A stretch of 64,000 nucleotides of DNA from Bordetella genomosp. 7 (GTDB taxonomy: Bacteria; Pseudomonadota; Gammaproteobacteria; Burkholderiales; Burkholderiaceae_B): assembly GCF_002261265.1 (NCBI RefSeq), contig NZ_NEVK01000008.1, positions 186,001-250,000 on the forward strand. The letters run 5' to 3'. The notes under the pieces were generated by a model. The model was not told the origin of the DNA. It searched no databases and saw only the letters and a program-made list of their open reading frames with translations. The position numbers were made by a program, and so were the translations under genes. Shown in pieces: positions 30,551-42,672 of the stretch. Each line of letters opens with the position of its first letter. Position 1 is the stretch's first letter.

Positions 30551-30960
30551 GGGTGTCTGACACCCAAGGGTGTCAGACACCGAGCTGCAAGCCCCCGACA
30601 CCTCCCGCGCATGCGCCCGGGGGGTGTCTGACACCCAAGGGTGTCAGACACCGAACCGCAAGCTCCTGACGCCACCCGCGCCGGCGCCGGGGGGTGTCTG
30701 ACACCCAAAGGGTGTCAGACACCGAACCGCAAGCCCCCGACACCACCCGCTCCGGCGCCGGGGGGTGTCTGACACCCAAAGGGTGTCAGACACCGAGCCG
30801 CAAGCTCCTGACACGACCCGCGCTGGCGCCGGGGGGTGTCTGACACCCAAGGGTGTCAGACACCGAGCCGCAAGCTCCTGACGCCACCCGCGCTGGCGCC
30901 GGGGGGTGTCTGACACCCAAAGGGTGTCAGACACCGAGCCGCAAGCGCCTGATGCCACCC
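30551..30960. repeat. Tandem array of hairpin repeats, locus 2 (six units of 70-71 bp)
   Basis: Units begin at 30551, 30622, 30692, 30763, 30834 and 30904. Each starts with GGGTGTCTGACACCC, a two- or three-A loop, and GGGTGTCAGACACC, a near-perfect stem of about 14 bp. A GC-rich linker (CCGCAAGCTCCTGAC-like, then CCACCCGCGC) follows. The hairpin core matches locus 1, but the linker is unrelated, so the hairpin is the conserved part. The array fills most of the 577-bp gap between the cyclase gene and 31064. The rest of that gap shows nothing else I can name. Confidence 0.95.
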
Positions 30961-39868: not shown

Positions 39869-39944
39869 GGCCTGGTAGCTCAGTTGGTAGAGCAGCGGAT
39901 TGAAAATCCGCGTGTCGGTGGTTCGATTCCGCCCCAGGCCACCA
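39869..39944 (+). tRNA. tRNA-Phe (anticodon GAA)
   Basis: A 76-nt cloverleaf. The acceptor stem GGCCTGG pairs with CCAGGCC. The D arm contains GCTCAGTTGGTAGAGC. The anticodon stem GCGGA/TCCGC encloses TTGAAAA with GAA at 39902-39904. The T arm is GGTGG-TTCGATT-CCGCC, and ACCA is encoded at the end. A strong terminator follows. The 3' side carries a lower-GC island, as is common at tRNA genes. Confidence 0.98.
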
Positions 39945-40186: not shown

Positions 40187-41071
40187 ATGCGCGAGCCGCT
40201 TACCCTGTCCATAGACCAAATCAAACGATCTGTCGTCAAGGCCATCCTATCCGACGACACGCTATTCGAAAATCTGGTACTCAAGGGTGGCAATGCGATC
40301 GACCTGATCCATCAGATCGCCGCGCGGGCATCGGTTGACATCGACTTTTCGATGCCGGGCGATTTCCCTGGCGGCGCCGACGAACTGCGTCGACGTGTCG
40401 ACAGCGTTTTGACGCGAACATTCAGCATGGACGGCTATCGAGTCTTCGACCTCAAAATGCTTGAAAAACCCGAGCATTTGAGCGAAGGCATGGCCGCCTT
40501 TTGGGGTGGCTACAGCGTTGAATTCAAATTAATCAGCGAGCCTTTATACAAGCAGCACGGCCCTGACATAGACGTAATGCGGAAGTACGCGCTCAATCTC
40601 GGGCAGGGCAAGAAGTTCTTGATCGATATCAGTCGCCACGAGTATGTCGATCATAAGCAAAGCATGGAATTCGAGGGATACATCATCTATGTGTATTCCC
40701 CCGAAATGATCGTCTGCGAAAAGTTGCGGGCGATCTGTCAGCAGATGCCTGAGTATGGCCCCGTAATCCGCAGGGGGCGTCCCGGTAGCGCACGCGCGCG
40801 AGACTTCGTAGATATCTACTACTTAGTCACGATGTTGAACTTGAACGTCACCTCGGACGAATACCGGACGGTCATTGCAGAGATGTTCGCTCGCAAGCGT
40901 GTTCCGCTTTCCCTACTCGGACGTGTCCGGCACTATCGTGAGTTTCACCGCGCAGACTTCGCAGCCGTGCAGGCAACTATGAGCCCAAATTTTGTACTCA
41001 AGGATTTTGACACTTACTTCGAGTTCACCCTTGATCTCGTTGCGCAGCTACATTCCCTTTGGGACGTATAG
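40187..41071 (+). CDS. abiEii: AbiEii/AbiGii-type nucleotidyltransferase toxin
   Basis: A 294-residue protein of the AbiEii family, DNA polymerase-beta-like nucleotidyltransferases that act as toxins of type IV systems and in phage abortive infection; relatives modify tRNA acceptor ends. Family motifs are VLKGGNAIDL (33-40) and the metal-binding pair in SVDIDFSM (Asp51, Asp53). Conserved YSPEMIVCEKLRAICQQ and ARARDFVDIYYLV follow. Codon use is visibly less GC-rich than neighbours, suggesting transfer. It runs tail to tail with the antitoxin-like gene, with a 24-bp overlap, instead of following it in an operon. Confidence 0.88.
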   Translation: MREPLTLSIDQIKRSVVKAILSDDTLFENLVLKGGNAIDLIHQIAARASVDIDFSMPGDFPGGADELRRRVDSVLTRTFSMDGYRVFDLKMLEKPEHLSEGMAAFWGGYSVEFKLISEPLYKQHGPDIDVMRKYALNLGQGKKFLIDISRHEYVDHKQSMEFEGYIIYVYSPEMIVCEKLRAICQQMPEYGPVIRRGRPGSARARDFVDIYYLVTMLNLNVTSDEYRTVIAEMFARKRVPLSLLGRVRHYREFHRADFAAVQATMSPNFVLKDFDTYFEFTLDLVAQLHSLWDV

Positions 41072-41935
41072 ACGCCACGCTTTCACATAGTCCATGTCGC
41101 CCATATCGTGTGCCAAGTAGAAATCGTAGTTCATCGGAAACCGCTTGATCAGGTCCAGCAAGTTTTGCCGATAGCCCGCCCGCTCAAGATAGAACCCAAT
41201 GGCCTGATGGTAAGGATATGTGTGGTCTATCTTCTTTAGCATGGCGGCCAAAGCATTGACCGACAGTTGATCTTTAGCCAACCGGAAAGCCTTGAGTACC
41301 TCAAAGACTCCGCCGGCATAGGCCGGGCGAACCGTGATGTCGATAAGCGTGCGCTCCAGGTTGGTCAGGCGGACGGTGACCGGCGTTTCGCTGTCATAGG
41401 TTACGGACTCCGTGATCACGCCGAGTTCGTCCGTGTTCTTGCCATTGATGAGATAGATCCTGGCGCCTTCAAAATCAATAGCGTTGTTCGACTCGCGCGC
41501 CTTGCGCTTGAATGCGGCGTCGATGCGCTCCTGAGCCAATCCGCCCGTGGACTGGCTCTTGAGATGCTGCTCATGGTTCAGGTAGATCGTTTTGGGAATT
41601 TGCTCGGTCAAGCCGTGCATACGGACAGCGGTGTAATGGCTGTAGTAACAGCTTGGCTTGAGAGTGAGCAAGACCTCCAGCAACGGCACGGAGCCCCACA
41701 CGAAGCGTGTTTCCGCCCGGTGAGGAAAAGGAAAGCGCAGGGTCTTGAGCTTGCCTTGCTTTTCCAGGAAGGTGATGAACTCTTGCGTGGTGGTGCGTTG
41801 AGCCAGGCGCCACCCCCGCCGCTGTTCGGCCAGAATCCGCTGTAGATCCGTCAGCTTGAAAACGGGCGACGACTGCCCAGCCAGATACTCAAAGATGTCA
41901 GGCTTGGCGATCTGAATGCGTGAAAAACCAACCAT
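41048..41935 (-). CDS. AbiEi-like antitoxin/transcriptional regulator
   Basis: A 295-residue protein resembling the long COG5340/AbiEi group. An N-terminal winged-helix region (KPDIFEYLAGQSSPVFKLTD, TTTQEFITFLEKQGKLKTLR) is followed by LKPSCYYSHYTAVRMHGLTE and a C-terminal domain with TNLERTLIDITVRPAYAGG. Known AbiEi proteins repress their own promoter by binding inverted repeats and neutralise AbiEii. Three palindromes lie directly upstream of this start. The 3' end overlaps the toxin gene by 24 bp in antisense. No good Shine-Dalgarno is visible before ATG 41935. Confidence 0.8.
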   Translation of the reverse strand: MVGFSRIQIAKPDIFEYLAGQSSPVFKLTDLQRILAEQRRGWRLAQRTTTQEFITFLEKQGKLKTLRFPFPHRAETRFVWGSVPLLEVLLTLKPSCYYSHYTAVRMHGLTEQIPKTIYLNHEQHLKSQSTGGLAQERIDAAFKRKARESNNAIDFEGARIYLINGKNTDELGVITESVTYDSETPVTVRLTNLERTLIDITVRPAYAGGVFEVLKAFRLAKDQLSVNALAAMLKKIDHTYPYHQAIGFYLERAGYRQNLLDLIKRFPMNYDFYLAHDMGDMDYVKAWRLYVPKGM

Positions 41936-41947
41936 CTTCGTGTCGTG

Positions 41948-41971
41948 CTGTGAAGTATATATACTTCACAG
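41948..41971. promoter_or_regulatory. Palindrome 1 (24 bp, perfect)
   Basis: Core TGAAGTATATATACTTCA flanked by CTG and CAG. It lies 13 bp before the antitoxin start and would sit in its leader. A half-copy (CAGTATATGTGA) overlaps its right edge (41969-41980). Centre 41959.5. Confidence 0.9.
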
Positions 41972-42043
41972 TATATGTGATTTTTCGCTCCCGGATGACG
42001 AAGTTCCGGCCCGAACCGGCTGATTGTTAGGCAGAACCAGGCG

Positions 42044-42069
42044 GCGCTGAAGTATATATACTTCAGCGC
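42044..42069. promoter_or_regulatory. Palindrome 2 (26 bp, perfect)
   Basis: Same 18-bp core, flanked by GCGC on both sides (self-complementary). Centre 42056.5, exactly 97 bp from palindrome 1. Confidence 0.9.
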
Positions 42070-42138
42070 TGCCTGTCGGAAAATACCTGTTTCTGCCGCT
42101 TGGGCTTCTGGTGCCATCTTCAGAGCAAGAATATGCAT

Positions 42139-42168
42139 GTCCAATGAAGTATATATACTTCATTGGAC
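42139..42168. promoter_or_regulatory. Palindrome 3 (30 bp, perfect)
   Basis: Same 18-bp core, flanked by GTCCAA and TTGGAC. Centre 42153.5, again exactly 97 bp from palindrome 2. The three arms (3, 4 and 6 bp) share no sequence, yet all pair perfectly. The gap 41936-42327 holds nothing else that looks coding. Confidence 0.9.
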
Positions 42169-42230
42169 TACGCACGCCATACTCCGTGCAGAACTCGAAC
42201 TCCCTGTAGCTTTTCTCGTACGGCCTGGTC

Positions 42231-42241
42231 GAATTCAATGC
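42231..42241. repeat. Right copy of 11-bp direct repeat flanking the AbiE island
   Basis: GAATTCAATGC, identical to 39946-39956 just behind tRNA-Phe, with GGCC at the same distance upstream. It marks the probable right end of the inserted segment (about 2.3 kb). Confidence 0.5.
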
Positions 42242-42327
42242 AGTAACCCCTCGCTACAATCCCTACCCACAAGTCATGTCATCACGAGGGCCGCCGCCAC
42301 GGCGGCAGGCAAAGGGACTACCGATCA

Positions 42328-42672
42328 ATGGGTACACGCTACGGCCGCCGTCGCTCGGACGGCACTTATGAGTACCACGACAGTGAAGCCTCTTTAAAGG
42401 CTGCAAAGCGCCAAGAGAACCAACGGGCGCGAGCGGGCTTTTTCGGCCTGGTCGGCTTGGCGGTGGGCGGGTGGCTGGCCTATCTGGGGTTGCAGTACGC
42501 CGGCGCGGCCGACTGGCCGAAATGGACGCGCTTTGCAGGCGTGCTGGCAGGCGCGGGCTTTTGCGCCGTGCTGTTCTCGATGCTTGCAGAGGTGATCTGG
42601 AAGTTGATGGCCGGGCTGTTGGTGCTCGCCATTCTGACGGTGATCGGCACGTCAATCTGGCAGGCGGTGTAG
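42328..42672 (+). CDS. Small inner-membrane protein of unknown function
   Basis: A 114-residue protein with a charged N-terminus (about 35 residues, rich in Arg, Lys, Glu) and three hydrophobic segments: AGFFGLVGLAVGGWLAYLGL, FAGVLAGAGFCAVLFSMLA and a C-terminal LMAGLLVLAILTVIGTSIW. I do not recognise a family. It lies just outside the right direct repeat and is convergent with the TPP-enzyme gene, whose stop is 2 bp away. Base composition returns to the chromosomal level here, so it may be a resident gene. Confidence 0.7.
   Translation: MGTRYGRRRSDGTYEYHDSEASLKAAKRQENQRARAGFFGLVGLAVGGWLAYLGLQYAGAADWPKWTRFAGVLAGAGFCAVLFSMLAEVIWKLMAGLLVLAILTVIGTSIWQAV

What the first reader, a model, noticed from the sequence alone, without database searches (positions are those of the whole stretch)
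41948..42168. Three perfect palindromes at exact 97-bp spacing, with arms that covary
Seen directly: three palindromes of 24, 26 and 30 bp share the 18-bp core TGAAGTATATATACTTCA. Their centres (41959.5, 42056.5, 42153.5) are exactly 97 bp apart. Outside the core the flanking arms differ completely (CTG/CAG, GCGC/GCGC, GTCCAA/TTGGAC), yet each pairs perfectly. Thirteen independent complementary pairs are very unlikely by chance. Selection therefore seems to act on dyad structure (cruciform, RNA hairpin or dimer contacts), not only on sequence. The spacers between them are not similar to each other. Known AbiEi proteins bind inverted repeats at their promoter, but a phased three-copy array with covarying arms is not something I know from that system.
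Basis: partly seen in the sequence, partly recalled or inferred. Interest (0 to 1): 0.8.

Follow-up and report, generated by a model that had tools for sequence, protein, structure and literature searches.

The report
Self-pairing DNA operators of an antitoxin
The three palindromes belong to a widespread kind of probable control site in front of an AbiE-type antitoxin gene, in which the outer letters are almost free to change as long as the two arms still pair, suggesting that the cell may read a folded DNA hairpin and not only a sequence.

Summary
In detail: three perfect palindromes (24, 26, 30 bp) with core TGAAGTATATATACTTCA and centres 97 bp apart lie just upstream of an AbiEi-like antitoxin gene, which converges on an AbiEii-like toxin gene. 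The exact 97-bp phase is not conserved in relatives. The arm covariation is: 73 of 80 related loci from several phyla carry such palindromes upstream of AbiEi, against 1 of 30 classical AbiEi loci. Among sites chosen by a 10-bp core alone, positions 9-13 from the centre pair in 88-97% of sites, although the bases there differ almost as much between sites of one locus as between loci. Positions 6-8 are locus-specific, as expected if the locus's own AbiEi reads them. G-T mismatches are only slightly commoner than A-C, so an RNA stem is unlikely. A minority of sites (32 hits in 214) show TTGAC 28-37 bp upstream on the sense strand, eight times the background. Best reading: AbiEi autoregulatory operators at promoter starts, often in tandem, whose outer arms are kept by selection for DNA self-pairing, most simply because the working form is an extruded hairpin or cruciform. 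No binding, transcript or structure data were available; the hairpin step is inferred.

The parts
41948..41971 (-). Proximal palindrome (24 bp), centre about 24 bp upstream of the AbiEi start; on the sense strand TATACT lies in the core and again ending 10 nt upstream of the centre. Read on the + strand it also scores as a terminator-like hairpin
42044..42069 (-). Middle palindrome (26 bp perfect; 38 bp, 42038-42075, with one G-T mismatch)
42139..42168 (-). Distal palindrome (30 bp)
41048..41935 (-). AbiEi-like antitoxin / probable autoregulator, 295 aa; presumed reader of the palindromes
   Evidence: PADLOC AbiEi 1.1e-22; no Pfam family at 0.001, PF09407 17.1 bits, below its 22.2 cut-off; hhalign of the family with a Pfam-recognised AbiEi, L057, 97.7%
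40187..41071 (+). AbiEii-like nucleotidyltransferase toxin, 294 aa, convergent with AbiEi and overlapping it by 24 bp
   Evidence: PF08843 2.3e-28, 100 bits against cut-off 22.5
41936..42327 (-). Intergenic control region of AbiEi with two promoter-like matches on the AbiEi sense strand, whose -10-like TATACT is part of the cores of palindromes 1 and 2
   Evidence: 2 found, 0.4 expected in shuffles

Best explanation
The palindromes are the operators of an AbiEi-type antitoxin that regulates its own, often tandem, promoters. Each site has an inner 16 bp (positions 1-8 from the dyad, GTATATATAC plus locus-specific flanks) read as sequence by the AbiEi of the same locus, and outer arms (positions 9-13 or more) in which only self-complementarity matters. 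The simplest physical cause of the second rule is that the working form is a DNA hairpin or cruciform of about 13-bp arms extruded at the promoter start, held or read by AbiEi, which blocks RNA polymerase and would be lost when the DNA is relaxed or broken. Shown here by sequence: the sites, their link to this AbiEi clade, the two zones, the lack of a clear RNA wobble signal, and, for a minority of sites, the position on sense promoters. Inferred: that AbiEi binds them, that it represses, that a hairpin or cruciform forms, and the link to supercoiling.
For: 73 of 80 related loci have sites within 600 bp upstream (184 sites); the same scan finds 20 sites in 419,392 bases elsewhere in those loci and a site in 1 of 30 classical AbiEi loci. 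GTATATATAC chosen without any arm requirement: 134 upstream, 3 elsewhere in the 80 loci. In 20 whole genomes 41 of 55 places lie upstream of AbiEi (assigned by me from the contig ranges; the reversed control pattern has 26 places). AAGTATATATACTT in 399 genomes of the order: 5 places, all upstream of AbiEi-family genes; reversed control 2. One site per each of 59 non-redundant loci: positions 9-13 pair at 92-97% against shuffled means of 25-38% and maxima of 42-58%. Within-locus base identity is 61-72% at positions 6-8 (between loci 35-45%) but 32-45% at 9-13 (between loci 26-39%): locus-specific inside, pairing outside. 462 of 1040 within-locus cells at positions 6-13 are paired in both sites with different pairs. 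Among three close relatives stems vary in 8 of 132 columns, spacers in 63 of 216; two of five variable pairs changed on both sides. Sense-strand TTGACN at 28-37 bp from the centre: 32 hits in 10 distances against 21 in 51 other distances; antisense 5 and 12. Two of those five antisense hits, L008 and L109, are at 31 bp on the side of a divergent gene; in L109 that gene is annotated hipA, in L008 I only judged it HipA-like by eye. Known AbiEi proteins autorepress through inverted repeats over their promoter (PMC3985639, PMC7319586: passages only).
Against: No binding, transcript or structure data; the structure job failed and could not be repeated. In plasmid loci of lactobacilli, streptococci, lactococci and a staphylococcus the arms are alike within a locus and similar between loci (such as AAGCTATGGTATA), like an ordinary 26-bp operator. 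Position 2, which would lie in a hairpin loop, is always paired, but the scan required it. Promoter register differs between clades (31, 33, 36 bp), and most of the 214 sites have no TTGAC there; in the window itself promoter evidence is weak. Five loci with enough upstream sequence lack a site by the rule (L046, L072, L077, L084, L088; L077 has a shorter 16-bp palindrome), as do plasmid loci L117 and L125. A 13-bp half-site could also be a plain protein footprint. Within-locus identity at positions 9-13 is slightly above the between-locus value, so some sequence preference may remain there.
Confidence: 0.5

Rival explanations
1. Ordinary B-form AbiEi operators. Only positions 1-8 are selected; the outer arms stay complementary passively, because hairpins in replicating DNA make template switches that copy one arm onto the other (quasi-palindrome correction).
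For: Positions 6-8 are locus-specific; the lactobacillus-type loci look like ordinary operators; template switching at palindromes is established (recalled).
Against: Pairing stays at 88-97% to position 13 and falls after it (77% at 14, 58% at 15), which looks like a length requirement; stems have about a fifth of the share of variable columns of the spacers (three sequences only); only 20 such sites occur in 419 kb elsewhere in these loci.
Confidence: 0.25
2. RNA hairpins: the palindromes act in a transcript, as a leader, terminator, small RNA or RNA antitoxin.
For: Perfect stems, tandem array, 5' position; transcripts from distal promoters could run through proximal sites; palindrome 1 scores as terminator-like on the + strand (1 found, 0.2 expected); in the unfiltered core set G-T mismatches (17) slightly outnumber A-C (10).
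Against: No clear wobble excess in any count: G-T against A-C mismatches 8 to 9, 17 to 10, 11 to 7 in 1296 cells; visible sense promoters put the start inside the palindrome; only sub-threshold Rfam models in the window region and in six relatives.
Confidence: 0.1
3. A feature for RNA polymerase: self-pairing of the strands in the promoter bubble, or mirrored -10 boxes that fire in both directions.
For: In several loci -10-like boxes lie in the left arm or in the core and are mirrored in the right arm.
Against: The register to TTGAC differs between clades (31, 33, 36); pairing extends over positions with little base preference; no reason for a tie to AbiEi.
Confidence: 0.08
4. A recombination or replication hairpin (attC-like, rolling-circle-origin-like, transposon end).
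For: Such elements have variable but pairing stems (recalled); relatives were found on 39 plasmid records; integrase or recombinase genes are annotated near some of them (L103, L104, L105, L107, L119, L125).
Against: Sites cluster upstream of AbiEi and, where visible, on its promoters; several plasmid stretches show no recombinase (for example L110, L113). A shared recombinase was not tested systematically.
Confidence: 0.03

Closest known systems
AbiE type IV toxin-antitoxin, AbiEi autoregulation in Streptococcus agalactiae (PMC3985639) and Rv2827c of Mycobacterium tuberculosis (PMC7319586); passages read only
   Same: AbiEi-family antitoxin with AbiEii-family toxin; inverted repeats over the antitoxin promoter; multiple sites
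   Different: There: bicistronic operon, two 23-bp repeats spaced 3 bp with 4 mismatches, or four 23-bp repeats. Here: convergent overlapping genes, separate and often perfect palindromes (24-30 bp here, up to 64 bp in relatives), arms free but complementary
AbiEi of Streptococcus suis ICESsuHN105 (PMC11062541); passages read only
   Same: AbiEi binds two palindromic sequences in its promoter and represses; also binds oriT
   Different: No mention of arm covariation or of an array in the passages read
Promoters controlled by cruciform extrusion; ColE1 cruciform with 13-bp arms (both recalled, no call)
   Same: Palindrome of about 26 bp or more, AT-rich centre
   Different: Not known to me as a natural, protein-linked, family-wide operator type
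Integron attC sites and rolling-circle origins (recalled, no call)
   Same: Stem sequence free but pairing kept; conserved tip
   Different: Here the sites lie upstream of an antitoxin gene, in part on its promoters, with no constant recombinase or Rep seen

Membership tests
AbiE type IV toxin-antitoxin system | AbiEii / DUF1814 nucleotidyltransferase toxin | tested here: met
   PF08843 100 bits, cut-off 22.5
AbiE type IV toxin-antitoxin system | AbiEi (COG5340-like) antitoxin | tested here: met
   PADLOC AbiEi 1.1e-22; hhalign 97.7% to an AbiEi over Pfam cut-offs. Pfam AbiEi_1 is below its cut-off for this protein (20 of 39 members match at E 0.01); no PDB sequence match
AbiE type IV toxin-antitoxin system | Bicistronic antitoxin-toxin operon | tested here: not met
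   Convergent, overlapping by 24 bp; 76 of 78 related loci with a toxin hit are convergent within 300 bp (L087 at 378 bp, L106 divergent)
AbiE type IV toxin-antitoxin system | Antitoxin binds promoter inverted repeats and autorepresses | not testable with these tools
   Sites present; binding not tested
AbiE type IV toxin-antitoxin system | Toxin inhibits growth, antitoxin neutralises without complex | not testable with these tools
   -
Cruciform- or hairpin-controlled promoter | Self-complementarity conserved while sequence changes | tested here: met
Cruciform- or hairpin-controlled promoter | Extruded structure detected in supercoiled DNA | not testable with these tools
   Only single-strand folding done
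Structured RNA (type III antitoxin, leader, riboswitch) | G-U wobble pairs tolerated on the transcribed strand | tested here: not met
   G-T against A-C mismatches: 8 to 9, 17 to 10, 11 to 7; no clear excess
Structured RNA (type III antitoxin, leader, riboswitch) | Match to a known RNA family | tested here: not met
   Only matches below the gathering scores (window 41000-42400, six of the 80 loci)

The most novel reading that the evidence does not exclude
A natural, phylum-spanning class of structure-read operators: a toxin-antitoxin repressor recognises an extruded DNA hairpin (sequence-specific tip, pairing-only stem) at promoter starts, so that antitoxin expression is gated by DNA supercoiling or integrity and senses relaxation, breakage or single-stranded entry of DNA, for example during phage attack or transfer.
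Probability: 0.35. Interest if true: 0.92.

Novelty: new variant of a known kind. Interest (0 to 1): 0.77.

Why it matters
DNA operators normally keep letters, not pairing. Here the same covariation logic that reveals RNA helices points to a DNA helix, in front of antitoxin genes in many phyla, with several sites per locus as internal controls. If the hairpin reading holds, it gives a direct way to ask whether bacteria use cruciforms as regulated control elements, and a possible trigger for AbiE-type systems. Even if it fails, the sites mark a convergent AbiE clade whose antitoxin is mostly annotated as hypothetical protein in the plasmid records seen, and predict its operators.

Tried and rejected
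Exact 97-bp phasing: rejected by the relatives and by the broad spacings. RNA structure: disfavoured. tRNA-Phe as an integration site: the longest shared repeat between the tRNA side and the far side is 11 bp. A scan of genome contigs with the protein alone found nothing. An AbiEi search of viral contigs and of phages gave no relative; AbiEii was searched in phages only, no match. Palindromes in viral contigs looked striking, but the three wider scans stopped at 120 rows each, the control weakens them (25 of 365 core palindromes extend to arm 12 or more against 12 of 376 other palindromes), and some lie inside long reading frames; kept only as a lead. Literature: ten searches (two found no paper; only 20 of 39 and 10 of 42 papers were listed) showed no title or abstract start that reports covarying arms in AbiEi operators. 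Only passages of PMC7319586, PMC11062541, PMC3985639 and PMC7725324 were seen, no whole text and no supplement, and the library lacks most subscription papers. An idea that polymerase scrunching lets both arms pair was dropped because the register differs by clade. The cruciform energy estimate (16-19 kcal/mol relieved by 26 bp at sigma -0.05 to -0.06) uses constants from memory and is only a plausibility check. Promoter consensus motifs (TTGACA, TATAAT, the Bacteroidota TAnnTTTG box) are recalled.

Full report
What is there. The window holds an AbiE-like pair of low G+C (52-57% against 62-70% around it) between a tRNA-Phe gene (39869-39944) and a small unknown gene followed by a thiamine-diphosphate enzyme gene. 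AbiEii (40187-41071, +) and AbiEi (41048-41935, -) converge and overlap by 24 bp. Their 18-bp core is found nowhere else in the genome, even with three mismatches.

Relatives. A protein search of the order gave matches in 16 of 399 genomes, own included. L005 and L006 (about 50% identity) and L007 and L008 (about 23%) had perfect palindromes upstream of AbiEi; L009, whose contig begins 108 bp before the frame, and L010, a 37-residue fragment, had none. An alignment of five of these proteins brought 80 loci, the best of 130 found. Perfect palindromes of 16 to 64 bp crowd the upstream region. With a tolerant stem scan there are 197 stems in the 600 bp upstream of 80 loci, against 11 in a stretch downstream, 2 inside the gene, and 7 far upstream in 61 loci. 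By a fixed rule (positions 2-12, at most one mismatch) there are 184 sites in 73 of 80 loci; of the seven without, L080 and L094 have no upstream sequence. The same rule gives 20 sites in 419,392 bases elsewhere in the loci. Of 25 plasmid loci opened from 39 hits, 23 have at least one site: 10 of 10 by the tolerant scan, and by the fixed rule L111 and L112, with a different core, and 11 of 13 further ones.

Controls. Classical AbiEi loci (PF13338) show a site in 1 of 30. Of ten distant AbiEi loci (L011-L020) none has one within 700 bp upstream of the match, though L014 has only 84 bp there. In the reverse direction AAGTATATATACTT occurs at five places in 399 genomes of the order, three here and two at L007 and L008; the reversed control pattern has two. 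In 20 whole genomes GTATATATAC occurs at 55 places and the reversed control at 26; comparing places with the contig ranges, 41 of the 55 lie upstream of AbiEi. Three of these genomes have none because their sites use other cores (L024, L033, L061).

Two zones. Taking GTATATATAC alone as the criterion, with no demand on the arms, positions 6-13 pair at 90-96% in 134 sites of 59 loci while base entropy rises to 1.99 bits; pairing is 78% at 14, 51% at 16 and 26% at 21. With one site from each of 59 loci made non-redundant by shared 16-mers, positions 9-13 pair at 92-97%; 2000 shuffles of the right arms never exceeded 58% there. With five common cores (179 sites, 81 loci), two sites of one locus share a base at positions 6-8 in 61-72% of cases (35-45% between loci), but at positions 9-13 only in 32-45% (26-39% between loci), while pairing there is 88-97%. 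So positions 1-5 are general, 6-8 go with the locus, as expected if its own protein reads them, and 9-13 are held mainly by pairing. In three close relatives stems vary in 8 of 132 columns and spacers in 63 of 216; of five variable pairs two changed on both sides and three pass through or contain a mismatch.

DNA or RNA. Mismatch counts, G-T or T-G against A-C or C-A on the sense strand: 8 to 9 in all upstream stems; 17 to 10 among 85 mismatches in the unfiltered core set at positions 6-13; 11 to 7 among 57 mismatches in 1296 cells of the 162 of 170 sites that keep at least six of eight pairs. An RNA stem should tolerate G-U on the transcribed strand; the small G-T lead in two of three counts is not a clear signal. 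Unexplained: 25 of those 57 are T-T or A-A. Rfam gives only matches below the gathering scores. Against this, palindrome 1 read on the + strand looks like a terminator.

Promoters. In 214 sites of 87 loci, TTGACN on the AbiEi sense strand peaks at 31, 33 and 36 bp from the palindrome centre: 32 hits at 28-37 bp, 21 in 51 other distances; on the other strand 5 and 12. Two of those five are at 31 bp on the side of the divergent genes of L008 and L109. Bacteroidota sites often follow TAACTTTG-like boxes (by eye). Some distal sites have such a promoter too, so the region can be a tandem array of promoter starts; 86 of 111 spacings are 60-141 bp. Most sites, however, show no recognisable TTGAC. In the window itself the evidence is weak: two matches on the sense strand using TATACT in the cores of palindromes 1 and 2.

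Gene order. Of 90 loci 78 have an AbiEii hit, 76 convergent within 300 bp. In Firmicute plasmids L106, L116 and L118-L124 AbiEii is divergent, and palindromes lie between the genes; there the arms are alike within a locus and similar between loci, with one paired change on both sides in L118. In L109, L111 and L112 the divergent neighbour is a HipA-family gene or, in L111, lies next to pieces of one, and palindromes lie between it and the AbiEi-like gene; the L109 protein matches the family at 99.9%. This pattern fits AbiEi-family proteins as the readers.

Mechanism. Known AbiEi proteins repress their promoter through inverted repeats (passages of PMC3985639 and PMC7319586). The inner zone fits that. 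The outer zone does not: a protein on B-form DNA should not ask for complementarity without asking for letters. A hairpin or cruciform can. Arms of 13 bp are also about where, with constants from memory, supercoiling at sigma -0.05 to -0.06 would pay for a cruciform. The rivals are a passive copying of arms by template switching, and a plain 26-bp footprint as in the lactobacillus-type loci. I hold the operator role as likely (about 0.75 to 0.8) and the DNA hairpin as the working form as roughly even against its rivals combined.

Limits. All of this is sequence evidence. No protein structure could be predicted, and the family profile finds no sequence in the PDB at E 0.1. The place counts were assigned by hand from coordinates.

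Noticed in passing
L131 10453, L132 4199, L134 4232, L135 7857 and other viral contigs: Palindromes of 24 to 34 bp with the same core in viral contigs whose fetched stretches show no AbiEi homologue (25 loci); the four named ones lie in or beside short gaps between phage genes, and in L132 a TTGACA ends 31 bp from the centre. The control shows only about twofold excess over other palindromes.
   Followed up: partly
window 30552-30863: Three copies of one hairpin-like sequence, GTGTCTGACACCC..GGGTGTCAGACAC (centres near 30566, 30637, 30849).
   Followed up: no
L008, L109, L111, L112 (and a HipA_C gene near L076): AbiEi-like proteins next to divergent HipA-family genes (annotated or Pfam for L109, L111, L112, L076; by eye for L008), with palindromes between them in L008, L109, L111 and L112; suggests an AbiEi-like antitoxin linked to a HipA toxin.
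   Followed up: partly
L006, about 1374-2262: AbiEi relative whose coding sequence lies in two frames; looks broken.
   Followed up: no
L091, 1780 and 1901 bp after the AbiEi start: Two GGTATATATACC cores without long arms on the far side of the AbiEii gene, perhaps weak sites at the toxin promoter.
   Followed up: no
sites: Mismatches inside the stems are often T-T and A-A (25 of 57; 31 of 85), not mainly the transitions expected from ordinary mutation.
   Followed up: no
L057 1052-2722, L093 635-2599: A second AbiEii-type gene with an AbiEi (L057) or DUF6577 (L093) partner lies divergent next to the palindrome-bearing AbiEi.
   Followed up: no
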